DNA of 49,350 nt from Geosiphon pyriformis (taxonomy: Eukaryota > Glomeromycota > Glomeromycetes > Archaeosporales > Geosiphonaceae): assembly GCA_016748015.1 (NCBI GenBank), contig JAAOMT010000710.1, forward strand, positions 103,808 through 153,157, in the 5' to 3' direction. The stretch's first letter is position 1. Each line of letters opens with the position of its first letter. The notes under the pieces are model-generated. The model was not told the origin of the DNA and did not search any database. It saw only the letters and a list, made by a program, of their open reading frames with translations. Below, in pieces: positions 1-42,528 of this stretch. Both the position numbers and the translations under genes were made by a program.

Positions 1-1
1 A

Positions 2-517
2 AACATCGCCAAACCCCTTAATTACCTACTATCTAAAAATGTGAAGTTTGAATGGACTGAAGCACAACAAAAAGCTTTTGAGTACCTTAGACAAAAGCTC
101 ATTGAATCACCAATAATGATCTATCCGAATTTCAACAAGAAATTCATTTTGGCCACAGATGCCTCTGGAACTGGACTTGGAGCCATTCTGTCACAAAAAG
201 ATGATAATGGAAGAGAACGTGTAATCGCTTATGCCAGCAGAAGTCTCAGTACGGCAGAACAAAACTACACAGCACATGAACTTGAATGCTTAGCAGTAGT
301 CTGGAGTTGTGTTCACTTTGACACATATTTACGGTACCAACCCTTTGAGATTACGACAGATTATAGAGGTCTGGTCTGGTTAAATAACAAGAAAGCGCTA
401 AAAGGAAAATACACCAGATGGTCACAAATATTAGTACCATACAATTATATTATCAAATACAAAGAAGGTACCAAAAATGCTAATGCCGACTGTTTGTCAA
501 GAATGAGACACACATAA
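2..517 (+). CDS. Element A pol, end of RT and RNase H (partial)
   Basis: The frame is open from base 2, with no start inside the window, and ends at the TAA of 515-517. The connection between RT and RNase H (KFEWTEAQQKAFEYL) is followed by a Ty3/gypsy-type RNase H that degrades the RNA strand of the reverse-transcription hybrid. The three acidic positions are visible: ATDASGTGLG, HELECLAV and TTDYRGL (usually TDH). The tail NADCLSRM is typical of the end of Ty3-type RNase H. No stop interrupts the 171 codons, in contrast to B and D, so A looks younger. A stop directly after RNase H with no integrase following is odd for Ty3/gypsy. Confidence 0.85.
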   Translation, partial: NIAKPLNYLLSKNVKFEWTEAQQKAFEYLRQKLIESPIMIYPNFNKKFILATDASGTGLGAILSQKDDNGRERVIAYASRSLSTAEQNYTAHELECLAVVWSCVHFDTYLRYQPFEITTDYRGLVWLNNKKALKGKYTRWSQILVPYNYIIKYKEGTKNANADCLSRMRHT

Positions 518-4369: not shown

Positions 4370-4796
4370 AGCAACTATCTCTAATAATAAATTCCTAGCA
4401 GCTATTTTTCCTTTTAAACTTGAGGAAACCACACCAGTCTCATTATTTAGTAGAGCCATTCTTGACACCAAACCAATCATTGCTATGTACACTAATGTGA
4501 AAGTTGATGGCCATGCCATCAAACTGATCCTAAACAGTAAATCAGCTGGTAGTATTATTACATAACAATTCATGGACCAATTAAGTTGCCAAATTGATCA
4601 TGCTGTCAGCACATGCATAATCACTGCTGATAAAGCAACTAAAACTCCAATTGGCGAGATTGATGACCTCCCTATAGAGATCAATGGCATCATCATGTCA
4701 ATCAAAGTATTAGTCATGGAGGCCACCCAATATCAAGCTCTAGTTAGAAACAATTGGCTGTCCAAAACCAATATAATACTTGACTGGATTACCTAA
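4370..4796 (+). pseudogene. Element B aspartic protease (broken)
   Basis: This is a retropepsin-like domain that would cut the Gag-Pol polyprotein. The active-site region reads LILNSKSAGSIIT. The C copy has LILDSESTGSIIT, and the ancestral form was presumably DSG, so the catalytic Asp is Asn here. A TAA follows at 4563-4565, in the position of an Arg codon in C. The downstream strands (PIGEIDDLPIEI and NNWLSKTNIILDW) fit the second half of a retropepsin. Confidence 0.75.
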
Positions 4797-4799
4797 AAG

Positions 4800-5990
4800 T
4801 TGCAAATCAGCCAAAATGGCCAATACACACAAACACCAGCTATGTGTAGTTATTTTAAGACCACTAATCCACCAGCACTATTAATCAAACTTGAAAAAGA
4901 AGTAAGCAAACCTTTTTGGAAAGCCTATCAAGTCTCATGGGCTGATGAGAACCACAATGAGCTACTGCCAATACTTTCATGGGATGACCAAAAAAAAAAA
5001 AAAGTGCACAGAAAAACTTACCTAAAGGATTTACAACAACCAAAGTGAAATGTTACCAATGTGGATATGGGAAAAGAAAGAAAAAGGGAAAAAGGAAAGA
5101 CCAGAACTAGCCACTACCCCAACATATACTCCATATACTTACTCTTAACCACCACAATCGCATTATTGTTAACCAAAGCTCATTTGCATTGATTGTGACA
5201 AGAAATTGTCATCAATAGGCACATGCTGTGGCAACAATAAGAAATATCTAACAACAACTAAATTTTATTGCCACCTCTGCATCATTGAATGCTTTGGAAG
5301 ACCAAAATGAGTTGGAAAATAAGATAATGAGTTGTGCTTAGCTTGTGGAGAAACTCTCCTTAACAAAAGAATGTGGAACAACATTCTTGGGAGAGGAAAA
5401 ACATGCAACAAATTGTGTTAGTACATGATTCTCATCAGCAACTAAGTAAGAAAAGGAACACCCATAGATCCTGCCTGAAGACAAACAGTCAAACACTTGG
5501 ATGAATATCCTTATGATGATAACAAGATTTGGCAAATAGCCTTTGCCAAAATCAAAAGAGCATTACCAGAAGAAATAAGGACAATCAAAAATAACCCTCC
5601 CAAGTCCATAGAACTTGACTGGGACCCAGAACCAGTCATAAATCTTTTGGATCCAGAACAATTTCATAAGCACTACCAAAAATTGGCACCCATCAGAGAA
5701 GAGCAAGAGCAATGGTTAAAAGAAATAAACACAAGACTATGTGACCACTGTTTGATCCCATGTGACTTCCAATATTGTAATAAGTGTGATCTCATTTATA
5801 ATTCACCACGTGACTTCCAATATTGTAATAAGTGTGATCTCATTTATAATTCACCACCACACATGATGTACACAATCGCAAAAGAGGACAAACCAATTAG
5901 CAGCTGTGCATCAGAATTGGAATCAATTTTCAATCCCAATTCAAACTCCAACAATAATGATAACAAAAACAATGGTTCCAGCTCCACTTA
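4800..5990 (+). pseudogene. Element B cysteine-rich linker between protease and dUTPase
   Basis: This region has C-x2-C pairs. One set (about 5180-5360) reads CIDCDKKLSS.., CHLCIIE.. and LACGETLL. Another (about 5738-5855) reads CDHCLIPCDFQYCNKCD. The second resembles a treble-clef or zinc-ribbon arrangement. The segment 5497-5991 is open, acidic near its start and Asn/Ser-rich at its end. The function is unknown; it may bind zinc and nucleic acid. A 48-bp in-frame tandem duplication lies in it. Confidence 0.6.
5762..5857 (+). repeat. 48-bp in-frame tandem duplication
   Basis: The unit at 5762-5809 is repeated at 5810-5857 with no or almost no change. It duplicates 16 codons covering the second cysteine pair (DFQYCNKCDLIYNSP). 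The corresponding region of element C has one unit only, so the duplication is private to B or its close relatives. Confidence 0.85.
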
Positions 5991-6059
5991 ATATAGCAAT
6001 AGAAATAACAATGATTCAAACTCTAAAACATACATTGCACTCTCAGATCTCATCAAAGA

Positions 6060-6600
6060 GCAAGAACTGAAATGGTTTAGCAATAATAGTGAAGGTATTA
6101 TGCCAGAACTTGTGTATAATACTAATGTAGGGTTTGATCTGAGATATCCTAGAAAAGATGCCATCAAATTGGAACCACATTCACACACATGCATTGATCT
6201 CAAAATAGCATTGGAAATCCCAACAACAACAATGGTTCAATTAGTATCCAAAAGTAGCTTAGCAAAAAGAAGAATAAATATCAGAGAAGGAATAATTAAT
6301 GCAAGATATATAGAAAATATTATTGCAATGCTATAAAATGACTCAAAAAAAGTCTATACAATAGAGCCAAATAAAAAGATAGCTCAGACAATATTTTTGC
6401 CTTTGGTTAAAATAGCTCAGCTAGTGTTAGTGAAAAACAGAGAAAAATTGGGAATAACGGCAATAGGAATACAAGGATTTGGATTAATGAGTAAAGTAGA
6501 TATACCAGTTAATATGACAGAAAAAGAGATTATTAACAAAGAAGAAATTATCTCCACCTGTCAACCAATTTCCATTTCACCATATGACTAGTATATAATA
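6060..6600 (+). pseudogene. Element B dUTPase domain (inactivated)
   Basis: This is a trimeric-type dUTPase, an enzyme that hydrolyses dUTP to dUMP and limits uracil in newly made DNA. All five family motifs can be placed: NTNVGFDL (motif 1, normally DAG), SKSSLAKRR (2, normally RSSLA), EGIINARY (3, catalytic Asp now Asn), NKKIAQTIFLPL (4) and GIQGFGLMSK (5). The Asp-to-Asn changes and a TAA at about 6334 indicate inactivity. The C copy keeps the canonical residues. The domain lies between protease and RT in the same frame as RT. Confidence 0.85.
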
Positions 6601-6893: not shown

Positions 6894-7860
6894 TTATCTA
6901 CTCCAACCAGAACAGTTGGAACAGATAAACATGAGAAACTTAGATCTACTTTAATGTATGCAGCTCAAGATGTTACTCAACAATTTCAATAACATTTTTG
7001 CCAGTAAAAACAAATTTGGTAGAACTGATATAATCTAGTACCAAATCAAAACTGAAGATATGATGCCAATTAAACAAAGAGCATACAAAGTACCACCAGC
7101 CAGCCATGAAATCATTTGTCAAAAAATCAATCAAATGCTTGACAATGGGCTAATTCAGCTATCAATGAGCCTATAGTCATTACTAATGGTACTAATTCAT
7201 AAAAAAAATAGAAAAATCCGATTTTGTGTGGATTATTGGAAACAAAATAGAGTAATCAAAGAAGATAGCTATCTAACTTCAAAGATCCAAGAACTTTTTG
7301 ATGCTTTTGGAGAAAAAAAATGGTTCTCAACATTAGACTTAGATAGTAGTTATTGGTAGGTAGCCATAAAACTGGAAGACAAGAAGAAAACAGCTTTTAC
7401 CACACAAGAAAAAAATTTTGAATTTGAAGTTATGCCATTTGGCTTGATGAATGCTCCAGCCACATTTCAATGGCTCATGGAAATTGTCTATACAGGACTA
7501 CTATAGAAAGCAGTAGTCATATATCTGAATGACACCAATGTGTTCTCAAAAACATTTAATGATTATCTGCATTATCTCTAACAAGTATTTGAAAAACTCA
7601 GATGAGCAGGATTGAAATTAAATGCCAACAAATACTTCTTTGGTAAAACAGAACTCAAGTTTTTGGGACATGTTGTGAGCAAAGATGATATCAAAACAGA
7701 TCCAGATAAGATTGAAATTGTCAAGAACTTTCCAGTACCAAATAATCTTACAGAATTAAGAGCATTCTTATGATTTGCAGGATACTACTGCTGCTTTATC
7801 AAAGACTTTTTCAAAATAGCTCAACCACTACACCAGTTCCAAACAAAGAACACCAAATAT
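6894..7860 (+). pseudogene. Element B reverse transcriptase (broken)
   Basis: Ty3/gypsy RT landmarks in order are [48 protein letters not shown] and FLGHVVSK. The catalytic YLDD of the C copy is YLND here (Asp to Asn). Many stops replace Gln, Trp or Arg codons, for example LR*AG where C has LRRAG. It cannot encode a working enzyme. Confidence 0.85.
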
Positions 7861-9116: not shown

Positions 9117-9813
9117 TATTACAGATGATTATTTGGGGTTTCAAAGCAAATAACAAACCCATAACTTGGTGCTCAATTAATATAAATGCTTGGGAATATC
9201 TAAAGATGTTGTTTTATCTGAAGATTTTGTTGTGAAGTCTTTTGTATAATGAACAGAGATTCAATAGTGATGTAGTTAGTTGTTGAGTTGTTTTTTCAAT
9301 TTCTGTCTTTAGCTTGGTAACTGGTTTATTCTGGCAGTTGTGTCCTTCTAGTAAGCTATTTGTTAATATATATAATTCTACCCTTATTTCTGAGTCTTTT
9401 ACCAGACTGTCTGTGATGTCAATTACTCAGTGCTTTAATTTTTAATTAATTAGTATACAACAATAAAATCAAAGAAAAAAAAAAAAAGAAAAAAAAAGAA
9501 AAATAAAGAAATGAGCCAAGGCAATGTGCAAGTTAGTATCTATCAATAGCTGTGATCAAGAACTATTGTTCCAGTGGAGTTAAGTAGCAATTACTATCAA
9601 CATGAAATGTTGATAGTAAAGAGTGGATTGAGATGACAAATAATTATTTATTGATATTGGTGATGTAAAAGGTTTCTAATTAATGGATCTTTTTCTACTT
9701 CTAACACTACTAGTATATATACATAATTTGGGTTCTATGAGATCACTCACATTCTCAAGCAATGTGCTATAATTTCTCAAGCAATGCTCACATTGCTGAG
9801 CAATGTGTCATAT
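9117..9813 (-). repeat. Element C 3' LTR (left copy, U3 end deleted)
   Basis: It aligns with 18094-18790 of the right LTR over nearly its whole length. It then runs directly into the polypurine tract and lacks the outer ~145 bp of U3, including the terminal TG and two palindromes. Its other end is tattacagatgatt against tgttataggtgatt in the right copy, showing transitions. Confidence 0.8.
9544..9617 (-). promoter_or_regulatory. Two conserved LTR hairpins (element C, left LTR)
   Basis: The stem actatcaaca / tgttgatagt (9593-9617) is 10 bp with a 5-nt loop. Beside it, caatag / ctattg (9544-9568) flanks a tgatcaa core. Both recur in the right LTR (18521-18594) and in the B 3' LTR (20644-20717). 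A role in transcript structure or regulation is inferred only. Confidence 0.55.
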
Positions 9814-10639: not shown

Positions 10640-11720
10640 TTTAGTTAATCATTATGTGCTGTTTTGACTAAGATTTTGTTGTCCCATCTTAATTTATAAG
10701 CTTCATTTCTAAGAATTTCTTCTATGTGAAATGGTCCGTTCCATTTGGGGTCAAATTTTTTATTCCATTGTTTTTCTGCTTTGGTACAATGTAAAAGTAC
10801 TTTGTCTCCAATCTTGAATTCAACTGGTTTATCTGGTAGTTGGCTATTGTGTCTTTCTTTTTGTTTCTCTTGTAACTTTTGAATGTTATTAGCTGCTTTC
10901 CATTGTCTGTTTTCTAGTGTTTCTATTAAGTCATATGTTCTTCTCAACAATGTTTCTTGGAAATTGGCTTCTGTTATTGGTTTAGTTGGATATGTATTGA
11001 CTTCTATCTCAACTGGTAATGTTGCTGTTCTACCATATACTAATTCAAATAGTATTGCTTATGTAGTGTCTTGCTTCATTGTCCAATAAGCAAATAGTAC
11101 TGATAGTATAACCAAATCCCATTTATCCTGGTTTTCCTGACTGATCTTAGCAATTGCTTCACACAGTGTTCTATTAAATCTTTCTACTAATCCATTGGTT
11201 TATGGATGATATGGTAATAATAATGGTCTTTTTATTTCAAATCTTTGACTTAATTCTGTCAATGTTCTGTTTATAAAATGAGTTTCTTGATCTGATAGTA
11301 GTTCTTTTGGACATCCATATTGACAAATCAAATCTTGATAAACAAATTCAGCAACTGATTTTGCATCTGCTCTTTGAATGGCTTTTGCTTCTGGCCATTT
11401 AGTGAGATAGTCCATGACTACTGCAATATATCTGTTGCCTCTGCTAGTAATTTTTAATGGCTCTACTAAGTTAATTCCAATGCAATCAAATGGTTGTCTC
11501 ACTTTGATTGGCCTTAATGGTTCCCTGGGTCTTGTTCCTTCTCTCCTCTGGCAAGCATCACAATTTTGGACATATTGAATGATGTCTGGATACATTGATG
11601 GCCAATAGTATCTTTTTCTAGTTCTTTCCATGGTTGCTTCTTTATAAAAATGTCCTGCTGTTAAATCTGAATGCATGTTGAATAATATTGTCTCTTTCTC
11701 TGGTTGGTTAATCTGAATTT
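10640..11720 (-). pseudogene. Element C integrase (nearly complete)
   Basis: From 11676 downwards the HHCC zinc domain (TAGHFYKEAT, VQNCDACQRR) is followed by the core domain and a C-terminal part (KIGDKVLLHCTKAE, FDPKWNGPFHIEEIL) typical of the GPY/F-type end of gypsy integrases. The first catalytic Asp is Asn (IGINLVEPL; D and B have IGID or IEID). The second Asp (DQETHFIN) and the Glu (VERFNRTL) are kept. A TAA replaces Gln in YHP*TNGLVER, and another replaces Gln in DTT*AILFELVYGR. Integration activity is therefore lost. Confidence 0.85.
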
Positions 11721-11929
11721 CTTCTGTTCTTTTGATAAAGTATGTTTTGATGGTTGATAAAATATTTTGATTGTTGTTTTATGTTCTTTTGTTCTTTTTG
11801 AGATAATTTCTCATTAAACAGTTGGGTATTTAAATAATGTTGGAGTTGTTAGTATTTTTGTATATTCATCTTTTACTATATTTTTGGGTTGAAATGGTTT
11901 TAAATTTGTCTTATTTGTGACAAACTGTT

Positions 11930-12360: not shown

Positions 12361-13340
12361 ATTTATATTTGGTGTTCTTTGCTTGGAGCTGATGTAGTGG
12401 TTGAGCTATTTTAGAAAAGTCTTTGATAAAATGGTGGTAGTATCCAGCAAATCCCAAGAATGCTCTCAATTTTGTAATATTATTTGGTACTAAAAAGTTT
12501 TTTACAATCGCAATTTTGTCTGGATCTGTTTTGATTCCATTTTTGTTCACCACATGTCCCAAAAACTTGAGCTCAGTTTTTCCAAAGAAACATTTGGTTG
12601 TGTTTAGTTTCAATCCAGCTCTTCTTAATCTTTCGAACACTTGTTGGAGATGATGTAAATGATCATTAAATGTTTTTGAGAACACATTGGTGTCATCTAA
12701 GTATATGACTACTGATTTCTATAGTAATACAGTATAGACAATTTCCATGAGTCATTGGAATGTTGCTGGAGCATTTATTAAGCCAAATGGCATAACTTCA
12801 AATTCAAAGTTCCCTTCTTTTGTTGTGAATGCTGTCTTTTCTTTGTCAGCTAAATCCATAGTTACTTGCCAGTAACTACTGTTTAGATCTAATGTTGAGA
12901 ACCATTTATTTCCTCCAAAGGCTTCAAATAGTTCTTGAATTTTTGGAGTTGGATAGCTATCACCTTTGGTTACTCTATTTAGTTTTCAATAATCCACACA
13001 GAACTGGATCTTTCTATTCTTCTTCTGAACTAGTACTACTGGTGACGATTATAGACTTATTGATGGTTGAATTAGCTTATTGTCAAGCATTTAATTGATT
13101 TCCTAATGAATAATCTCATGGCTGGCTGGTGGTACTCTGTACACTCTTTGTTTAATTGACATTGCATCTTCAGTTTTGATCTAATGCTAGATGATGTTGG
13201 TGCGGCCAAATTTATTTTTGCTTGCAAAGATGTCATTAAAATTGCTGAGTAACATCTTTAGTTACATTTGTTGAAGTGGGTCTAGATTCCCCATATTTAT
13301 CTGTTTCAATTGTTCTGGTTGGAGCAGATAACATTCACTT
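12359..13340 (-). pseudogene. Element C reverse transcriptase
   Basis: RT motifs on the minus strand include MPFGLINAPATFQ, VVIYLDDTNVFSKTF (catalytic YLDD intact), LKFLGHVVNKNGIKTDPDKI and LRAFLGFAGYYHHFIKDFS. One open stretch covers 12359-12685. Upstream motifs (FCVDY, LDLNSSYWQVTMD) are readable with a few stops. The reading frame differs by one from dUTPase, which implies an indel between about 12685 and 13344. Confidence 0.85.
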
Positions 13341-13343
13341 TGT

Positions 13344-13640
13344 CTATATATAGTCTGTGATATAATATTCACAAAGCTGTGAAAAGTCTGAAATGTGGTT
13401 CAGTAATTGCTCCTCAACTTTAGTGGTTAAATATCCAATGATGGTTCTCTTTGGTATTTCGATGACATTTTTCATTGTGTTGTAGATGGGAATTTTTATA
13501 TTTTTGGGGTTCTTGGCTGATATGTAGAGATTAGTAAGTCCAATCTCTCCTGATTCACAAATAGTAGCTTCTGCTTCAAACAACTGAGCTTAATTCTTTA
13601 CTTCTCTTTTTATGGCTAACATATATTGATTATATGGTAA
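13344..13640 (-). pseudogene. Element C beta-rich spacer before RT
   Basis: The spacer is open at 13344-13583, with FEAEATICESGEIGLTNLYI and IPKRTIIGYLTTKVEEQL. It lies in the same frame as the dUTPase ORF, and a TAA at about 13591 separates them. It corresponds to B 6600-6890. It is probably a structural part of the polyprotein. Confidence 0.5.
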
Positions 13641-13652
13641 AATAGAAATTGT

Positions 13653-14330
13653 TTAACAGTTTGAGATAATTTCTCCTTTGTCAATAACCTCTTTTTCCAC
13701 CATATTAACTAGTATATCTATTCTATTTATTGATCCGAATCTCTGTATCTTTCTAGCTGTGATCCCTAATTCTTTTCTGTTTCCCACTGACACTAACTGA
13801 GCTACTTTCACCAGAGGTAGGAATATTGTCTGTGCTATCTTTTTGTTTGGATCTATGGTATATGTTTTTTCTGAGTCATTTTGTAGCATAGTAATGATAT
13901 TTTCTATGTATTTTGTGTCAATTATTCCTCCTCTGATGTTGATTCCTCTTTTTGCTAAACTACTCCTGGATGCTAATTGAACCATAGTTGTTGCTGGAAT
14001 TTCCAGTGCTATTTTCAAATCAATGCAAGTGCATAAATGTGGTTCTAATTTGATGGAATCTTTCTCCAAATATCTCAGATCAAATCCTGCATCAGTATCA
14101 TGCATGCATTTAGACATGATATCTTCATTATTATCACTGAACCATTTTAGTTCTTGTTCCTTGGTGAAGTTGGGCAGTGCAATATATTGTTCAGAGTTTG
14201 AATTGAAGTTTGAATCTGGGTTAAAATCATTGTTGTTCTGAATGAAGCTAGAACCATTATTTTTATCATTATTGTCAGAGTTTGAATTGGGATTGAAAAT
14301 CAATTCCAATTCTGACGCACAGCTGCTCAT
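13653..14330 (-). pseudogene. Element C dUTPase domain (best preserved copy)
   Basis: This is an open stretch of 225 codons. The first ~65 residues are Asn/Ser-rich, then a dUTPase fold follows. Motif 1 is DTDAGFDLRY (about residue 80), motif 2 SRSSLAKRG (about 118), motif 3 GGIIDTKY (with the catalytic Asp), motif 4 KKIAQTIFLPLVKVAQL and motif 5 RKIQRFGS. The domain as seen here would hydrolyse dUTP to dUMP and pyrophosphate. It sits between the cysteine-rich linker and RT. The motif 5 Gly (usually GFGS) is Arg, so activity of this copy is uncertain. Confidence 0.88.
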
Positions 14331-14399
14331 TGGTTCGTCTTCCTCTGGAATTGTGTAGATTATGCATAGTAGTGGATTGTAAATGAGGTCATACTCATT

Positions 14400-15422
14400 A
14401 CAATATTGAAAGTCACAGGAAATTAAACAATAGTCACATAGTCAAGTGTTGATTTCTTCCAACCATTGCTCTTATTTCTCTTTAGTGGATGCTAATTCCT
14501 GATAATGTTTGTGGAATTCTTCTGGATTTAGAAGATATATAACTGGTTTTGGGTCCCAGTCTAATTCTATGGGTTCAGGTGGATTATCTTTAATTGTTTT
14601 TATTTCTTCTGGTGATGCTCCTTTAATTTTGGCGAGTGCCATTCACCAGATTTTGTTATCATTATGTAGACATCTATCTAAACGTTTGATGGCTTATCTC
14701 TAGGCAGCATCTATGGGCATTCTTTTTCTCACCCAGTCACTTATGAGAATCATGTATTGACACAATTTGTTGTACGTTCCTTCTTACCCAAAAATGTTAT
14801 TCCACATTCTTTTGTCCAGAAGAGTTTTTCTACAAGCTAAGCATGGTTTATTGTCCCATTTTTCAACCCATTTTGGTCTTCCAAAGTGTTCAATGATGCA
14901 TAGACGGCAGTAGAATTTTGTTGCCGAAGTGTATTCCTCATCATTACTACAACAAGCATCTATTGATGACAATTTCTTGCCACAATCAACACATACCAGT
15001 TTTGGGTGGCAATAAGCAGATCGTTGGGGTGTAAGATAGGAATTATAAGTGGGGTTGCTGTTAGGTGTTGGTTCTTCTTCCTTTTTTTTTCCTTTTTCCT
15101 TTTTGTTTTCCTTCCATTCCCAGTTTATTAATTCTTCCTGGTCATTGTCAATTTCCCAGACTTGGTTGGCTTTCCAGATAAGTTCTTCTTTCTGTTTTCC
15201 TTTGCTGTTGTCATTCCATGAAAGTACTGGCAGCAGCTTGTTGTGTTTGGAATTGGCCCAGGAAACTTGGTAGGCTTCCCAAATAGGTTTCATCTCTTCT
15301 TCCTTGAATTCGATAAGTGGGGTTGTCAAGTTGGTGGTCTTGAAATGGCCACACATGACTGGTACACGTGTGTATTGACCATTCTGGCTGAGCTGTAATT
15401 CTTGCATATTCCAGTTGAGCAC
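14400..15422 (-). pseudogene. Element C cysteine-rich linker
   Basis: The ORF at 14784-15422 carries a very charged Lys/Glu segment (KENKKEKGKKKEEEP). It then has Cys pairs: CVDCGKKLSS, ACCSNDEEY, CRLCIIEHF and CLACRKTLL. These are spaced like a multi-zinc module. A TAA follows, then the fragment 14400-14780 with WDPKPVIYLLNPEEF. No known family was recognised. The same module is present in B and D, so it belongs to the element. Confidence 0.6.
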
Positions 15423-15429
15423 AGCATTT

Positions 15430-15890
15430 GTCTTGACTAACCAGTCATTACCAACTAATGCTTAGTATTGAGTTGCTTTTATCACTAGGACTTTGATGGG
15501 AATGATGATACTATTGTTAAAAGGGAAGTCATTAATCTTACCAATGGGAGTCTTGGTTACTCCATTGGTGGTTATAATTCTGGCATTGGCAGTGCAATCA
15601 ACTCAGTAACTTAATTGGTCCATGAGTTGTCTTGTAATAATGCTGCCAGTTGATTCACTATCTAGAATCAGTTTGATAGCATGGCCATCAACTTTTGTGT
15701 CAGTATACATGGCGGTGATCAGTTTGGTGTCAAGAACAGCTCCACTAAATAATGGTGTGGTTGATGGTTCTTTAAGTTGAAATAGAAAGATGACATCTAA
15801 GGATTTGTTTTCGGTGATAGTAGCTAGTGGAATGTTACTGGTGAGTAATTGTTTTTGGTTGGTTTCTGGATTATTGGATGGCACGTCTTT
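15430..15890 (-). pseudogene. Element C aspartic protease
   Basis: The open part at 15603-15884 contains PLFSGAVLDTKLITAMYTD and LILDSESTGSIITRQLMDQL. This places the catalytic Asp in LDS(E/G)STG. The Gly after DS is Glu, which probably damages the active site. A TAG for Gln or Trp follows DQLSY. The remaining strands continue to about 15430 (WLVKTNAVLNW), in the same frame as the cysteine-rich linker. Confidence 0.75.
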
Positions 15891-18093: not shown

Positions 18094-18935
18094 TGTTATA
18101 GGTGATTATTTGGGGTCTCAAAGCAAATAACAAATTCATAACTTGGTGCTTAATTGATATAAATGCTTGGGGATATCTGAAGGTGTTGTTTTATTTGAAG
18201 GTTTTGTTGTGGAGTTTTTTGTATAATGAACAGAGATTCAACAGTAATGTAGTTGGTTGTTGAGTTGTTTTCTCAATTTTTGTCTTCAGCTTGGTGGCTG
18301 GTTTATTCTGACAGTTATGCTCTTTTGGTAAGCTATCTGTTAATATATATAATTCTACTCTTATTTCTGGGTCTTTTACCAGGTTGTCTATGATGTCAAT
18401 TACTTAGTGCTTTAATCCTTAATCAATTAGTATACAACAATAAAATCAAAGAAAAGAAAAAAAAGAAAATAAAAGAAAAATAAAGAAATGAGCCAAGGCA
18501 ATGTACAAATTAATATTCGTCAATAGCCATAATCAAGAGCTATTGTTCCAGTGGAGTTAAGTAGCAATTACTATCAACATAAAATATTGATAGTGGAGAG
18601 TGGATTGAAATAACAAATAATTATTTATTGATATTAGTGATGTGAAAGATTTCTAACTAATGGATCTCTTTCTACTTCTAGCACTACTACTATATATACA
18701 TAATTTGGGTTCTATGAAATTGCTCACATTCTCAAGTGATGTGCTATAATTTCTCAAGCAATGCTCACATTGCTGAGCAATGTGTCATATCTTCTAAACA
18801 TTGCTCCACATTGCTGAGCAATGTGCCATGATTTCTAACATTGCTCCACATTGTTGAACAATGTGCTCATGTGCTAACTACTATTTGCTTATTGGTCTAC
18901 TATTTTTTATATTTGTTTTCTTTTTATGAGTAACA
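18094..18935 (-). repeat. Element C 5' LTR (842 bp)
   Basis: On the minus strand it begins TGTTACTCATAAAAAG and ends CACCTATAACA. Three near-identical 17-bp palindromes of the form ACATTGCTnAGCAATGT lie in U3 (18767-18783, 18808-18824, 18848-18864, the last with changes). The two hairpins lie at 18521-18545 and 18570-18594. The length equals the LTRs of D. Confidence 0.85.
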
Positions 18936-25289: not shown

Positions 25290-26760
25290 TCTTATTTATA
25301 ACAAGCCATTAATATTTCTATTTTTTATTTATTTATAATATACAGTATAGTTAAATAATAAGAGTTTTATTTTCTATTTTGCATGGCAATCATTTCCAAA
25401 TTTTTGTTTCTGGATTAATGTTAATACTTTGTAATTAGTATATATTTCAAATTTCTGACTTAAATATTTCTTCTATTTTATAACAGTCTAATAGATAGTT
25501 AAATGTTTTAATGCTAGAGTTCTATAATTTTTTTTAGCTGGACTCAAACTTTGACTAGTATATATTATTAGATATTTTTGTCCATCTGCTTTTTTTTACA
25601 ATAACACTGCTTCTAATACTTAACTAAATACATTAATGATAATAATGAATAATTTGTTGTAATTTGAATAGATCAATACCAAAACTTAAATAAGCTTTTG
25701 TCCTAAGATATTAAAGACTTCTTGTTGTGTTTTAATTCATTTATACTTGGTGTTTTTGGCTTATAGCTAATACAATAGTTGAACCAGTTTAAAAAAATTC
25801 TGAATAAAACAGTAATAATATTTAGCAAATCCCAAAAATGTTTATAGTTTAATTAAATTGATGAAAATTAAAAAGCTTTTGACTATTTTGATTTTATCTA
25901 AATCTGTTTTTATGTCATCTTTGCTTATAACATGTTTCAAAAACTTAAGTTTAGTTTTCCCAAAAAAACACTTAATAGCATTCAATTTTAATCCTGTTTT
26001 TTTTTTAATTTTTCAAACACTTGTTGAAGATAATAAAAATAATTATCAAATGTTTTAAAGAATACATTAGTGTTATTTAAGTAAACTACTATTAATTTCC
26101 ATAATAGTCTGATGTAAGTAATTTTTATTAGCTATTGAAAAGTAACTGGAACATTAATTAAGCCAAAAAGCATAGTATTAAATTTAAAATTCTTTTTTTT
26201 GGTAGTAAACACTGTTTTTTTCTTGTCAATTGGATTTATGGCTACTTGTCAATAACTACTATTAAAGTCTAATATAGAAAACCAATTATGTTCTTCAAAA
26301 ACATTGAATAATTTTTGGATTTATAGAATTGAATAGCTGTTTTTATGAATAACACTGTTGAATTTTTTGTAATTTATACAAAAGTAGATCTTTTTATTTT
26401 TTTTCAGATAAGTATTATTGATAACAATCATGAATATATTAATGGTTGAATTAACTTATTGTTTAATATTCAGTTGATTTCTTAACAAATAATTTCATAA
26501 TTAACAAGTAATATTTAGTATGTTTTTTGTTTAATTGGTATTATATCTCCAGTTTTGATCTGATGCTGAATAATATCAGTTTTTTTAAATTTATTTTTAC
26601 TTACAAAGATGTTGGTAAAATTATTAAGTAATAACTTAAGTTGCATATATTGAAGTGGATCTAAGTTTCTCAAGTTTATTTGCTCTAACTGTTCTGGTTG
26701 TAGCAAATTATATTCTTTTTATTTGTAAATTGTTTATAATATAATGTCTATATATTCACA
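25290..26760 (-). pseudogene. Element D RT and RNase H remnant
   Basis: A 63-codon stretch at 26515-26706 (LLQPEQLEQINLRNLDPLQYMQ) matches the start of RT in B. Further down are FGLINVPVTFQ and the changed active site YLNNTNVF, then an RNase H with no long open stretch. It is inactive. Confidence 0.75.
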
Positions 26761-27049: not shown

Positions 27050-27700
27050 AAGATAAATTTTTTCTGATCAATTGTTTTTTTTCTATTATATTAACTAATA
27101 CCTCTATTTTACTCATAAATCCAAATTTATTTATTTCTTTTGCTGTGATTTCTAACTCTTTTCTCATTTTTGTTAATACTAACTAAACTATTTTTACCAA
27201 AGATAGAAATATTGTCTGTGTTAATTTTTTATTTAATTCAATAATATATGTCTTTTCTGATTTGTTTTGTAGTATTGCAATAATATTTTCTATATATTTT
27301 GCATTAATTATTTTTTCTCTAATATTAATTTTTTTTTTATATTAAATCTAAATACTAATTAAATTATTATTGTTGTTAAAATTTTCAGTACTATTTTTAA
27401 ATCTATGCTGGTGCACAAATAAAATTCCAATTTAATAGCAGTTTTTCTTAGATATTAGAGATCAAACTTTGTATCAGTATTATGTACACATTCTAATATA
27501 ATATCTTCATTATTATTGCTAAACCATTTAAGTTCCTGCTTTTTTAAAAGATTTAAAAATGCAATATATTGTTTGGAATTGTAATCAGAGTTTAAATTAT
27601 TGTTGCTATTGTTGCCATTATAGATAGAGTTAGAATCATTGTTATTATTATCATTAAAATTTAAATTGGAATTGAATTTTAATTCCAATTTTGAAACACA
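27050..27700 (-). pseudogene. Element D dUTPase remnant
   Basis: The Asn-rich leader is open at 27455-27688 and ends in NTDTKFDL, the counterpart of motif 1 (Ala and Gly lost). Later pieces match motifs 3 to 5 (KIIDAKYIENIIAILQN). It shows that the dUTPase is a fixed part of this family and not a private gain of C. Confidence 0.7.
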
Positions 27701-28699
27701 GCTGCTAATTGGGTTTTTTTTTTTAAAAATTGAATAGATTATGTGCAGTGGTAGATTATAAATAAAGTCACAATTATTACAATATTTGAAGTTACTGAAA
27801 ATTAGACAATATTTACAAAGTTTAATGTTTAATTGTTTTAAACATTGCTTTTACTTTTTTTAACTAAGTACTAGATCTTGGTAATATTTGTAGAATTGTT
27901 TTGAATCATTTAAGATGTTAATAAATACATTTAAATTGAGAATAAAAATGGTTTTAACAGGTTTTAGTGAGTTATTTTTAATTATCAATATTTTGCTGAA
28001 TAAAATATCTTCAACTTTGGCACTTGCCATTCTTTAAATCTTATTTTTATTATGTAAATAACTATCTAAATACAAAAGTGCTTGGTTCCATATAATATTA
28101 AAAAACATTCTTTAACTTACCTAATTACTTATAAAAATCATGTATTGGCATAATATATTATACATTTCTTTTTAATTAAGAATGTCATTCTACATTTTTT
28201 TATTGAGTAATGTTTTTTTACAAGTAAAACATAATTTGTTGTCCCATTTTTAATATTGTTTTAGATATTCAAAACATTTTCAGTAGTATGTTTTGCAATA
28301 ATAGCAGATATGTGTTTTATAGTTTTTTTTAAATGAGATCTAAGTTGTTATAGAAAAAAGCTTTTTCTTACAATTTTTGTATTTAAGTAGAATATAGAAT
28401 AATTGTTTTCTTAGTTCTAGAATTAAATATAATATATGTCAACTATTGGCTGTTTTTTCAGTAGTAATAGTGGCTTGAAGTTCATCATCTTTTTTTCTTT
28501 TTCTTTTTTTATTTCAAGAAAATATTGGTGATAATTTGTTGTAATTATTTTCAATTCACAAAACTTGATAGGGTTCCCAGATAGATTGTTTGTTTCTTTC
28601 TCAAATTTTATTAGTGACTGTAATTGGGTTGGTTTGAAGTAACTGCAGATAGTTAGTATTTGAATATGTTAACTATTTTAACTGAACTATAGCTTTTAG

Positions 28700-29170
28700 G
28701 TATTCTAATTAAGCATAGCATTAATTTTAAACAGTCAGTCATTACTAATAAGAGCTTAATATTATGTAGCTTTTATAACAAGAACTTTAATGAGTGTAAT
28801 AATACCATTGACTTTAAAAAAAAATTTGTTAATTTTACCAATAGGAGTTTTGATCACTTTATTAACTGTAATAATTTTGGTGCTAACAGTATAATTAACT
28901 TGACAACTTAATTGGTCTATGAATTGTTATGTAATAATGTTTTGCTAATCTATTATCAAAAATTAGTTTAATAAATTGATCATTGACTTTGGCATCTATA
29001 TATATGACTATAATAAACTTAACATTAAGAACAGCTCTATTAAATAAAAGTGTTATTGCTAATTTTTTTAATTTAAAAGGAAAGATAACTGCAAGTAATT
29101 TATTTTTTGTGACTATTATTGAAAAGATATTATTGGTAAATAGTATTGAATTGGTTTTCAATAATTTGAG
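28700..29170 (-). pseudogene. Element D protease remnant
   Basis: The stretch at 28895-29161 reads PFKLKKLAITLLFNRAVLN and LIFDNRLAKHYY at the active site, against LILDSESTG in C. The DS motif is lost. Confidence 0.65.
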
Positions 29171-35645: not shown

Positions 35646-36540
35646 TTATTCTTGGTTCTGCGCAGCAGCCCAGGCTCCGTACTCCTCTTCATCATCATCA
35701 CCTTCTTCTTCTCCATCACCTAATAATGTTACATAATTCTCTGGTACCAGACCAGTCTCCTCACCCAAATCAGCAACCAACCAACCCGCACATCGCCGAG
35801 ATCGTATCAACAATATATCTCCTTCTGAAAAACTGAGCTCGCTCTCGTTCTCACCCTGAAAATCATATAATGCACGTGCTCGGCGATCCGTAAATTCATC
35901 GTCCTCCTCGTCTATTGCATTTTGGTCCATATTATTTTGACCCCAGTGTCGGCTGTCATCTGCGGGAAAAGCAAAATCACGAATTTTCATATCTAGTTCA
36001 ATATCATCATAAAGTGCTGGGATATCTTTTGATCCTGGAAATAATGAAAATCATTTAATTTATCCATTTCAATCAAGTATGAAATTCGAAAGTGATGAAT
36101 CAAGTAAAACTACCTTTGACATTCTAAATTTCGAGAATCAGAAATGAAAAATCCACGAATATGATAATTCGAATTAATATCGTATATTTCAAATCTCGGC
36201 GAAAATAGTGACAAGGAACATAGGCTTACCGAGCGGACCCTTTTCTTCTCAGGCTCCTCCCAAAAATCTTCTTCATCCTTTACAAAGTCTGTACCACTCA
36301 CACCACCACCACCACCACCATAGTAATCACTCAACGTTTTTGCCAAGGAGTTCATCAATTCAGCCGGATCAAAATCGATTGGACTACTATTAGCATTATT
36401 TTGATTATCCATCTCTACAGTTGAGCTTCGACTATCTTTAGTCGGGGAAAGTTGTAAAACGGGAGTTTGAGAGCACGACGTCCGTGATAAGCGTTTCGTT
36501 TTCAATTCTTCACGTAATTCAGTATTATTCTTATTCTTAC

Positions 36541-40180: not shown

Positions 40181-42528
40181 TTATGAAATGATACAATCGT
40201 TCTTCTTTTTCTCCTTTTTTCTTTTCTCTTTTTCAACAGAGGAAGCCGTGGTGATGGTACTTCCAGAAGATGATTGTGCTGCACTGTCGGTTTGATTGTT
40301 TGATTGTTGTTGCGGCTGGTTTGATTGTTTTCGTTGGTCTAGTCGGAATGCAAGAAGCGTTCGGTTACCTTTTCGATTTTGTTGTTCCTGTTCTTGTCTT
40401 TTTTGAGATTGTTGTTGTGTCTGCTGCAAAATTTGATTATGCTGACGACGATACTGTGCTTCCTTCTCTTCTTCTTGTTGCTGCAGACTTAGTGCGAGTG
40501 CATAACTATTTAGAGAAAAGTTGTATTATAGATAAGCAATAGTTGAATCACTTTGAAACTTAATCTTTTCAAGAAATAAAATTAAATAAATATAATCAAC
40601 TCGAATAAAAATAATTGCTCTAAAACTTACTCCTGGTCACCACCGCCGACTATATCGGAATTGTGTTCGTCCACAACATCTAGATAATCCGACCCAGCTA
40701 AGTCACTTTTGAAGAATAGTCCATTAAGAAATTCCGATGCGCTTTGGTCCACATCCGTCAGAGATTCCCATACCACTGATCGTTGGTTGACGAAGCCTGC
40801 GTCAGTTACAAGCACATATAAGCTTGAGGTTGCGGGATTTTTGTAGAGTGTCGAGAACTTGATGCGACATTATATTAATTATAAGAACCGACATTACACT
40901 TGAGCATAGGCACGAAATTAATTATCAATGGCACTCTGGAAACAGGTGAGAACAATTATACCAAAAGCTCACACAAACTATGACAAACTCACATGATTGT
41001 TCCTAAAAAAAACACAAATATGGCCAGATGGTAGCGCCTCTGCTAGCGTTAATAATCCGTGATAAGTTAGTTGTGTTGCGGTAGAATTGAGAAAATGTGA
41101 TACGATCAAAGCTACAAAAAATGAACAAAACAAGTTTTGTGAAATTCCTCAATTGATCCCGAATAATCCATTATAATAAAAAGAAATGGATATAGGTTCG
41201 CGTACCATCTTTGGCGTCAGCGTTAAATGTCCCAACCGAGTTTCCATGTGCAATACTTCCGACTCCAGCCTCACCAAAACTTTCCACCACTAAACCTTTG
41301 CTTAAATCATCTCCTCTCACGACACACTCTACTGCCCGATTATAACTCCCACACTTTCCCACCACAACGTCCCACGCTTCTTCGTCCTGAGGGTCAACTA
41401 CCCAACCATGCACCAGATCGACATTAAACACATCAAATATAGATAGTTCAGCAGTTGGTTCAAATCCGTGAATTGAATTAAACCTAACATTTACATCTAA
41501 TCCCGCCTGCAAAGAAGGGATAATGGAAAGTGCTGCATTAAGCGTATGATGATAATCGTGCAGAGAAGGTTGTAAAATCGGAGGTAAAGGTTTCGAATTT
41601 TCGCTCTTCCCATTTGATTGTTGTTGTGGTTGTTGCTGACCATTATAAAGCTCACCGTTTGTAACTTTTATCTGAAATCAAAAAAAAGTTTTTTAAAAAT
41701 GAATTTCGCTAAAAATATACCAAATTCCTGTTTAATTATTACCTCAGCTTCACCAGGCGCGATCAATCTTAACAAATAATCTCCTAATAATTCTACAAGA
41801 AATTCATATGTAACACTGGGACGATCGTAAGGTCGAATTTCAATATCACCGCGAAGTATGAGCACATTACCTAGTTTAAAGGTGTCAAGAAAAATTAAGC
41901 ATAAAAATTGGTTCAAGAAGGATCTTGGAAAAAAAAATATCAACAACACAATATATGATCGGCAAATTTCCAATCAAATGAAAAGGATACAAAGAGCGTG
42001 TAAAGGACAGGGCCCATTTTCTAAATAAAAAAAAAATATTAAGAAAAAACAAAAAGTTAGATTATTTTGAATGTTAATTATTGAAAAGACCATTTTTAAC
42101 TCGCAACAAAACCATATGCTTATGGCTTCCATATGCTCAGATTCTAAAAGGCGAACAGAGCACACACCTCCACGCTCACATCATATGAATACCTCCCTAC
42201 CGTTCTGCGTAATGACTTTCAACTGTTTGACCTCACCAGACAGGGGGTCTGGCCATTCGATTGCTTTCAAATGATATTCGTTTGCAAATTTTCCCGTTTC
42301 AGAATCCTTTTCTTCACCCAAAGTTTGCGGTGGCCGAGCGGACGAGGCACCACCGTCAAGAGGGCCTACAGCTCTTTCTGGCGATGGGGTTGGTATTGTT
42401 ATCTCGGTTTCTCCGTCTAGTTGAACATCCCTGTCAACCGCTTTTCCTTTACCCTTTACTTGGGCTGATATAGCGGAAACATATTGAGATTCCTCTTTTT
42501 GTTCCATTACGTCGGAAATTGAAGTCAT
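40181..42528 (-). CDS. MINDY-1/2-type deubiquitinase with CaaX box (7 exons)
   Basis: The exons are 42528-42201, 42020-41991, 41870-41743, 41671-41206, 41111-40993, 40857-40631 and 40505-40181, giving 540 residues with all phases consistent. MINDY enzymes are cysteine proteases that trim Lys48-linked polyubiquitin. The N-terminus is disordered. The catalytic domain starts at YHLKAIEWP, has Gln and Cys in ITQNENGPCPLHAL, then NVLILRGDIE and LGDYLLRLI. Further on are LQAGLDVNVRF, DVFNVDLVHGWVVDPQDEEA, TQLTYHGLLTL, the catalytic His in VFFRNNHFSTL and RSVVWESL. DYALALSLQQQEEE after the domain is a MIU/UIM-like ubiquitin-binding helix, followed by a Gln-rich stretch. The last residues are a Lys-rich run and CIIS, a farnesylation-type CaaX box, which suggests membrane anchoring. 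The catalytic Cys sits in a 30-nt exon. Confidence 0.92.

What the first reader, a model, noticed from the sequence alone, without database searches (positions are those of the whole stretch)
13653..14330. dUTPase built into a Ty3/gypsy-type element, between protease and RT
Copies B, C and D all carry a five-motif dUTPase in the same place, so it is a family trait. Known retroviral dUTPases sit elsewhere: upstream of protease in betaretroviruses, and between RNase H and integrase in non-primate lentiviruses. The protease-dUTPase-RT order suggests an independent gain. It could protect reverse transcripts from uracil, possibly linked to cytosine damage of the kind seen in these copies.
Basis: partly seen in the sequence, partly recalled or inferred. 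Interest (0 to 1): 0.78.

Follow-up and report, generated by a model that had tools for sequence, protein, structure and literature searches.

The report
dUTPase-carrying retrotransposon family in Geosiphon
The window holds decayed copies of a fungal jumping element that really carries a dUTPase, an enzyme that keeps uracil out of DNA, between its protease and reverse transcriptase; the enzyme is an old, inherited part of an abundant family in this fungus, but the same arrangement has already been described in other fungi and in rotifers.

Summary
The dUTPase is real: window:13653-14438(-) matches Pfam dUTPase at 1.5e-16 and lies in a Ty3 element between protease and RT. The genome is almost certainly Geosiphon pyriformis. 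Copies B and D carry the domain at the same place, but broken. An uninterrupted 1307-aa frame elsewhere reads PR-dUTPase-RT-RNase H.

It is not a capture of the host gene, which I located: joining host gene and element dUTPases is rejected (AU p 1.8e-8). Element dUTPases form one clade whose branching matches the RT trees, with one metagenomic relative outside. A sister Ty3 family in the same genome lacks the domain.

The claimed novelty fails: PR-dUTPase-RT is published for Postia placenta and bdelloid rotifers. The suggested link to cytosine damage is not supported: in the young subfamily 973 of 1028 differences are C>T (490) or G>A (483), decay after insertion, and the dUTPase-free family shows it too.

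Best reading: an old Pol domain that lowers dUTP around reverse transcription (inferred). Possibly new: its abundance in this fungus, a conserved Cys-rich stretch before it, and a small deletion family keeping Gag-PR-dUTPase without RT/integrase.

The parts
13722..14150 (-). dUTPase domain of copy C (open frame 13653-14441)
15381..15719 (-). copy C aspartic protease
   Evidence: 59% identity to the protease of the uninterrupted frame in L012, whose Pfam assignment is
14394..15380 (-). copy C Cys-rich stretch between protease and dUTPase (LINK1), conserved in three Geosiphon subfamilies
   Evidence: no Pfam or NCBIfam family for the frame 14787-15461 inside it
13247..13682 (-). copy C stretch between dUTPase and RT (LINK2)
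12401..13240 (-). copy C reverse transcriptase
   Evidence: 61% identity to L012 RT, itself PF00078
11909..12400 (-). copy C RNase H
   Evidence: Pfam RT_RNaseH_2 1.9e-30
11203..11778 (-). copy C integrase (H2C2 zinc binding and rve core)
9119..9813 (-). copy C, part of the 3' LTR
   Evidence: 90.2% identical over 695 bases to 18096-18790; exact LTR ends not fixed
18096..18790 (-). copy C, part of the 5' LTR
4464..4817 (+). copy B protease
6067..6495 (+). copy B dUTPase, one stop, motif 3 Asp changed to Asn
6985..7824 (+). copy B reverse transcriptase
27111..27532 (-). copy D dUTPase, in two frames with stops
25779..26619 (-). copy D reverse transcriptase, matched in three pieces
28690..28941 (-). 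copy D protease, partial

Best explanation
The segment is the dUTPase domain of the Gag-Pol polyprotein of a Ty3-type LTR retrotransposon family in the genome of Geosiphon pyriformis. The family has had the domain since before its three subfamilies seen here split and before its split from a metagenomic relative (P0026), and has inherited it together with RT since. Most likely mechanism (inferred from the enzyme family and from retroviral work, not shown here): the domain, released by the element's protease or still joined to Pol, hydrolyses dUTP to dUMP in or near the particle, so that RT builds less uracil into the cDNA; this would matter most in nuclei that are not replicating, where the host's own dUTPase may be low. 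The window copies are dead relics that have decayed mostly by C-to-T change after insertion.
For: Domain. Order PR-dUTPase-RT-RNase H in one uninterrupted 1307-aa frame (L012); PR upstream in 20 of 20 and RT downstream in 15 of 20 dUTPase loci. Class: RT-RNase H best PDB match is Ty3, 1.5e-100. Age: the 15 Geosiphon element dUTPases in the tree form one clade (89/88) with P0026 next outside (100/97), and the branching, subfamily 2 outside 1 plus 3, is the same in the dUTPase tree (94/83) and the RT trees (80/80, 89/88). Host gene located in L029 and placed with cellular dUTPases (99/98); host capture rejected, p 1.8e-8. Past constraint: motif 3 Asp is kept in 24 of 28 and its Tyr in 28 of 28 element copies aligned (copy D not among them); between subfamilies amino-acid identity is 50% for dUTPase, close to RNase H (49%) and protease (56%) and above the two linkers (40%, 33%), and second-position divergence is about half of third-position (0.287 against 0.564).
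Against: Within the young subfamily dN/dS of the dUTPase (0.39) is not clearly below a neutral C-to-T simulation (0.475, sd 0.063), so recent copies give no proof of selection; stops in the dUTPase are few (3 against a simulated mean of 8.6, range 3-15), but these loci were picked by dUTPase score and long frames, which favours that. No activity, processing or trimer was tested; structure prediction did not run to an end. A sister family without dUTPase is common in the same genome, so the domain is not needed for success there.
Confidence: 0.72

Rival explanations
1. The domain is a recent capture of the fungus's own dUTPase gene.
For: Both are present in one genome; the gene is in L029.
Against: The 150 scored places match a yeast-like dUTPase at only 31-37% identity, whereas the host exon matches a cellular-type query at 67% and the 120 best-listed proteins match the joined host protein at 65-73%; the joint clade is rejected, p 1.8e-8.
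Confidence: 0.02
2. The domain is a passenger: it came in long ago and now has no enzymatic role, or serves a non-enzymatic one (structural part of Pol, signalling).
For: Among young copies the dUTPase decays about as a neutral C-to-T process would make it decay; the dUTPase-free sister family is common. A paper on bovine immunodeficiency virus says in its title that a dUTPase-related gene is critical for replication despite lack of dUTPase activity (PMC4261571, title and start of abstract in the listing only).
Against: Motif 3 Asp is kept in 24 of 28 and Tyr in 28 of 28 copies across three subfamilies, and conservation between subfamilies is at the level of RNase H, above the linkers.
Confidence: 0.2
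3. The domain protects the element against cytosine deamination, the cause of the damage seen in the copies.
For: The young copies are indeed dominated by C-to-T and G-to-A changes: 973 of 1028. Subfamily 2 shows more G>A than C>T per site: 135 of 1147 against 91 of 1218 in seven copies; 71 of 728 against 56 of 879 in a closer set of four (p 0.015) and 123 of 1164 against 117 of 1379 in a set of six (p 0.08).
Against: In the young subfamily the two kinds are even (490, 483; p 0.85) and both occur in 17 of 17 copies, the most uneven being L018 with 23 and 11 (p 0.06), so they mostly arose in double-stranded DNA after insertion; changes linked to missing retroviral dUTPase are reported as G-to-A especially (PMC4531489, passages). 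The subfamily 2 excess is mild and its direction is blurred by substructure. The dUTPase-free family has the same rate on both strands (194 C>T of 2896, 153 G>A of 2308). dUTPase removes dUTP and does not act on deaminated cytosine in DNA (established enzymology, recalled).
Confidence: 0.03
4. The dUTPases of all such fungal (and perhaps rotifer) Ty3 elements go back to one gain, so that the Geosiphon family is one branch of a very old lineage rather than an independent gain.
For: One clade of Geosiphon, P0026, P0034 and P0036 dUTPases is not rejected (log-likelihood only 0.12 lower, p 0.49); they share the PR-dUTPase-RT order.
Against: The free tree puts P0034 and P0036 elsewhere, with weak deep support; by RT they lie outside a clade that also holds the dUTPase-free family, which would need a loss. 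Novikova et al. judged that the described elements acquired it independently (PMC2864245, section read).
Confidence: 0.3

Closest known systems
PosPlaTy3-5 and other dUTPase-bearing Ty3 elements of Postia placenta (Novikova et al. 2010, PMC2864245, one section read)
   Same: Ty3 LTR element of a fungus with dUTPase between PR and RT.
   Different: No chromodomain found in the seven Geosiphon ORFs at or after the integrase that were scanned, whereas the paper's supplement title speaks of dUTPases of chromodomain-containing elements; Geosiphon elements have a Cys-rich stretch before the dUTPase.
Bdelloid rotifer Juno, Vesta and TelKA elements (PMC5408684, passages seen)
   Same: dut between PR and RT; a Zn knuckle near dut is reported for Juno.
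   Different: Rotifer hosts, extra ORF3; in Juno the knuckle follows dut, in Geosiphon the Cys-rich stretch precedes it.
Betaretroviral nucleocapsid-dUTPase (PMC4531489, passages seen)
   Same: dUTPase in a retroelement polyprotein with a Cys-containing segment in front.
   Different: There it is a trans-frame product of gag and pro that ends next to PR, here it follows PR in Pol.
Non-primate lentiviral dUTPase (PMC4531489, passages seen)
   Same: dUTPase inside Pol.
   Different: There between RT and IN.
P0026 (JGI protein, 882 aa on a 3,954-base contig, host unknown)
   Same: PR-dUTPase-RT-RNase H; next outside the Geosiphon dUTPases.
   Different: Only about 140 residues between PR and dUTPase, no LINK1 match.

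Membership tests
Ty3/Gypsy (Metaviridae) LTR retrotransposon | Pol order PR, RT, RNase H, integrase, with Ty3-type RT | tested here: met
   RT-RNase H of L012 matches Ty3 in the PDB at 1.5e-100
Ty3/Gypsy (Metaviridae) LTR retrotransposon | long terminal repeats | tested here: met
   695 bases 90.2% identical on both sides of copy C; in L027 repeats within 333-1161 and 5593-6381
Trimeric-type dUTPase (PF00692) | profile match over the curated cut-off | tested here: met
   60.7 bits against 22; 86.9 bits in L012
Trimeric-type dUTPase (PF00692) | five motifs with motif 3 Asp and Tyr (motif names recalled) | tested here: met
   copy C keeps motifs 1-4 with a changed motif 5; Asp in 24 of 28 and Tyr in 28 of 28 copies aligned; Asp not kept in B and D
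Trimeric-type dUTPase (PF00692) | trimer and dUTP hydrolysis | not testable with these tools
   structure jobs were interrupted or not accepted; activity needs the bench
Fungal dUTPase-bearing Ty3 elements (PosPlaTy3-5 type) | dUTPase between PR and RT | tested here: met
Fungal dUTPase-bearing Ty3 elements (PosPlaTy3-5 type) | chromodomain after integrase | tested here: not met
   no chromodomain at E<=0.01 in seven ORFs at or after integrase (L022 three, L024 two, L011 one, window one); only Tf2-1 SH3 matches below cut-off
Betaretroviral NC-dUTPase | dUTPase upstream of PR | tested here: not met
   PR lies upstream of the dUTPase in 20 of 20 loci
Non-primate lentiviral dUTPase | dUTPase between RT and IN | tested here: not met
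Bdelloid Juno/Vesta/TelKA | common descent of the dUTPase | not tested
   no rotifer sequence was retrieved

The most novel reading that the evidence does not exclude
The conserved Cys-rich stretch and the dUTPase together form one functional unit, a zinc-binding dUTPase that convergently mimics the nucleocapsid-dUTPase of betaretroviruses and holds the enzyme on the reverse-transcribing RNA. This would let the elements copy themselves in the non-replicating nuclei of a multinucleate, spore-forming fungus, and would fit the keeping of Gag-PR-dUTPase in a derivative family that has lost RT and integrase.
Probability: 0.12. Interest if true: 0.55.

Novelty: new member of a known kind. Interest (0 to 1): 0.3.

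Why it matters
It adds an abundant Glomeromycotina example to the LTR retrotransposons known to carry their own dUTPase and shows by matching dUTPase and RT trees that the domain has been kept through several subfamily splits. A dUTPase-bearing and a dUTPase-free Ty3 family side by side in one genome would allow a direct comparison of what the enzyme buys an element. It also removes a tempting but unsupported link between this enzyme and the heavy C-to-T decay of the copies.

Tried and rejected
Host capture: rejected. dUTPase as shield against the C-to-T damage: not supported. dN/dS as proof of selection on recent copies: withdrawn once a neutral C-to-T simulation gave ratios within 1.4 standard deviations of the observed ones for six of six pieces. 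Structure of the dUTPase and of the Cys-rich stretch: both jobs were interrupted, then no new jobs were taken. Relatives of P0026 in IMG/VR: nine pattern matches, none confirmed. Search with P0034: besides itself only P0036 and P0037. Literature: no paper in the held library has dUTPase with Rhizophagus and retrotransposon; for dUTPase, transposable element and mycorrhizal five papers were counted and three listed, none of them by title or abstract start on Glomeromycotina elements. I make no claim that nothing is in print on Geosiphon; the seven papers listed for Geosiphon, genome and transposable element were not opened. Idea that dUTPase hits with repeated frame lengths are RT-less: one with 284 and one with 188 codons fetched, both have RT and RNase H; the 208-codon kind was not looked at.

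Full report
What is there. The open frame 13653-14441 on the - strand (262 codons) is a dUTPase: Pfam PF00692 at 1.5e-16, NCBIfam 'dut' at 2.3e-20 but under that model's cut-off, 41 distinct PDB sequences at E<=0.001. A mapping with pieces of an uninterrupted copy gives for copy C, on the - strand: protease 15719-15381, a Cys-rich stretch 15380-14394, dUTPase 14150-13722, linker 13682-13247, RT 13240-12401, RNase H 12400-11909; the integrase is at 11203-11778 and LTR parts at 9119-9813 and 18096-18790. Copies B (+) and D (-) have the same order, but B carries one stop and D three in the matched dUTPase pieces, and in both the Asp of motif 3 reads Asn; C keeps that Asp but has a changed motif 5.

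Where it is. The window lies in G000 (124.7 Mb, 406 contigs). Proteins of Geosiphon pyriformis in nr sit on contigs of exactly the lengths of G000 contigs, for example 2355860, 1424523, 550891 and 541392, so I take the species as Geosiphon pyriformis, Glomeromycotina (lineage).

The family. The dUTPase profile search scored 150 of 3181 first-look candidates, all 150 over the curated cut-off; a subfamily 2 query scored 150 of 4178 candidates, all 150 at 81% identity or more. The scored numbers are lower bounds, and the numbers of candidates are not counts of genes. Of 20 dUTPase loci fetched (L009-L028, chosen for long frames or high score, so biased to well-kept copies), 20 have PR upstream and 15 have RT downstream; in two the downstream part is masked (L009, L013) and three (L018, L026, L027) carry a deletion. 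L012:3080-7000 is a single frame with PR 117-226, dUTPase 566-697, RT 931-1090 and RNase H 1154-1283. L011 has gag, PR and dUTPase in one frame of 1433 codons.

Elements without it. From the 150 scored RNase H hits I fetched 20 with about 2.6 kb upstream (L035-L054). Two cannot be judged (L049 mostly N, L052 cut by a contig end). Of the other 18, five have the dUTPase (L043, L044, L045, L048, L053) and 13 do not; 12 of those 13 have a protease match, in 11 of them about 590-600 bases before the start of the RT match. By RT the two sets are separated at 100/100. With Ty3 as outgroup the dUTPase-free family is sister to Geosiphon dUTPase elements plus P0026, the latter join having modest support (87/58), and the program warns of long branches on the outgroup side. 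A gain on that stem or a loss in the sister family both fit.

Origin. The host dUTPase gene is on G000:C262 (L029): one exon was found by 67% identity to a cellular query and four further exon pieces of the core were read by eye; the 120 best-listed proteins match the joined protein at 65-73%. In the dUTPase tree (35 rows, 140 columns) it falls with cellular fungal and plant enzymes (99/98), while 15 Geosiphon element domains from three subfamilies form a clade (89/88) with P0026 next outside (100/97); P0034 and P0036 sit elsewhere with weak deep support. Tests: host plus element clade rejected, p 1.8e-8; all Ty3-element dUTPases as one clade not rejected, p 0.49; Geosiphon and P0026 domains plus all cellular ones as one clade, p 0.08. 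The subfamily order, 2 outside 1 plus 3, is the same in dUTPase and RT trees, which speaks for inheritance together.

Selection. Within subfamily 1, dN/dS was 0.39 for dUTPase, 0.44 PR, 0.34 and 0.48 for the linkers, 0.43 RT and 0.67 RNase H. This looks like constraint but need not be: a neutral simulation with only C-to-T and G-to-A changes gave 0.475 (sd 0.063) for dUTPase, and the observed ratio lies within 1.4 standard deviations of the simulated mean for six of six pieces, above it for RNase H. Stops are fewer than simulated in five of six pieces (dUTPase 3 against a mean of 8.6, range 3-15; LINK1 25 against 27-45), which selection or my choice of loci with long frames could cause. Clearer constraint shows between subfamilies: identity 50% for dUTPase against 56% PR, 59% RT, 49% RNase H, 40% and 33% for the linkers, and second-position divergence 0.287 against 0.564 at third positions. 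The motif 3 Asp is kept in 24 of 28 and its Tyr in 28 of 28 aligned copies.

The C-to-T decay. In six coding pieces of subfamily 1 copies (10 to 16 copies a piece) 973 of 1028 directed differences are C>T (490) or G>A (483); CpG is hit most (15.8% of sites) but CpA, CpC and CpT also (3.1, 4.9, 3.9%). Both kinds occur in 17 of 17 copies counted, the most uneven being L018 with 23 and 11 (p 0.06). The two LTR parts of copy C differ at 68 of 695 sites, 66 of them transitions. In 13 dUTPase-free copies 347 of 504 are of this kind, at the same rate on both strands (6.7% and 6.6%). Against this reading: in seven subfamily 2 copies only 226 of 415 are of this kind and G>A is commoner per site than C>T (11.8% against 7.5%); in a closer set of four the excess remains (9.8% against 6.4%, p 0.015) and with two more copies it shrinks (10.6% against 8.5%, p 0.08). 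That is far from the one-sided pattern expected of damage to single-stranded cDNA, but I did not explain it. Loss of dUTPase in lentiviruses is reported to raise changes, especially G-to-A (PMC4531489, passages). A paper on Rhizophagus states that RIP signatures were not detected in Gigaspora margarita or Mucoromycotina and shows CpG methylation of transposons (PMC8647823, passages).

What it most likely does. Shown: domain identity, place in Pol, old inheritance, kept motifs in many copies. Inferred: dUTP hydrolysis near RT, release by the protease, benefit in non-replicating nuclei. Novikova et al. repeat the last idea for fungal elements, from retroviral work (PMC2864245, section read). Not shown: activity, expression.

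Known or new. PR-dUTPase-RT in Ty3 elements is in print for PosPlaTy3-5 (PMC2864245) and for bdelloid Juno, Vesta and TelKA (PMC5408684, passages); a further paper mentions enrichment of dUTPase domains with retroviral families in Entomophthora muscae (PMC11105155, passage). The finding is therefore a new and abundant member of a known kind.

Side result. L018, L026 and L027 share one junction at which the sequence passes from the linker after the dUTPase straight to the region before the 3' LTR, with a 9-base overlap of the two matches, so that RT, RNase H and integrase are missing. A 161-base query over the junction in L027 matched end to end in four places at 98-100%, L027 itself included (40 of 304 candidates scored). 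The flanks outside the LTRs do not align between the three loci, and the two LTRs of L027 are 97-98% alike in the parts not masked, so the deleted form has moved, presumably with RT and integrase supplied by complete relatives.

Noticed in passing
L018, L026, L027 and G000:C262:149937-150097: A small deletion family keeps LTRs, Gag-side sequence, PR and dUTPase but lacks RT, RNase H and integrase; four places share the same junction at 98-100% identity, and flanks differ for the three fetched.
   Followed up: partly
window 14394-15380 (-), L012 LINK1: A Cys-rich stretch with several CxxC pairs between PR and dUTPase is conserved in three Geosiphon subfamilies; no Pfam or NCBIfam family was reported there. 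P0034 and P0036 have other C/H repeats at the same place.
   Followed up: partly
L009-L028, L035-L054, window LTRs 9119-9813 and 18096-18790: Element copies differ largely by C-to-T change on both strands in all contexts with CpG preferred, a RIP-like or methylation-decay signature in a Glomeromycotina fungus.
   Followed up: partly
L017, L023, L025, L043, L044, L045, L053: In subfamily 2 G>A is commoner per site than C>T on the element's sense strand; mild and unexplained.
   Followed up: partly
P0037 (ENA protein, 1378 aa, 9,074-base contig): A protein with a Ty1/copia-type RT match (RVT_2, at its cut-off) and an N-terminal dUTPase that groups next to cellular ones, so perhaps another RT-dUTPase association of separate origin.
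   Followed up: no
L026 and L027 element ends: Both insertions of the deletion family are followed by GTGGTTTC and preceded by GTGG, with different sequence further out; possibly a target-site preference or chance.
   Followed up: no
window 1-514 (+): RNase H of a subfamily 1 element, 93% identical to L012, cut by the window edge.
   Followed up: no
window 41174-41677 (-) and 35649-36050 (-): Frames of host-type genes: MINDY deubiquitinase (9e-27) and an SH3 domain (1.1e-12).
   Followed up: no
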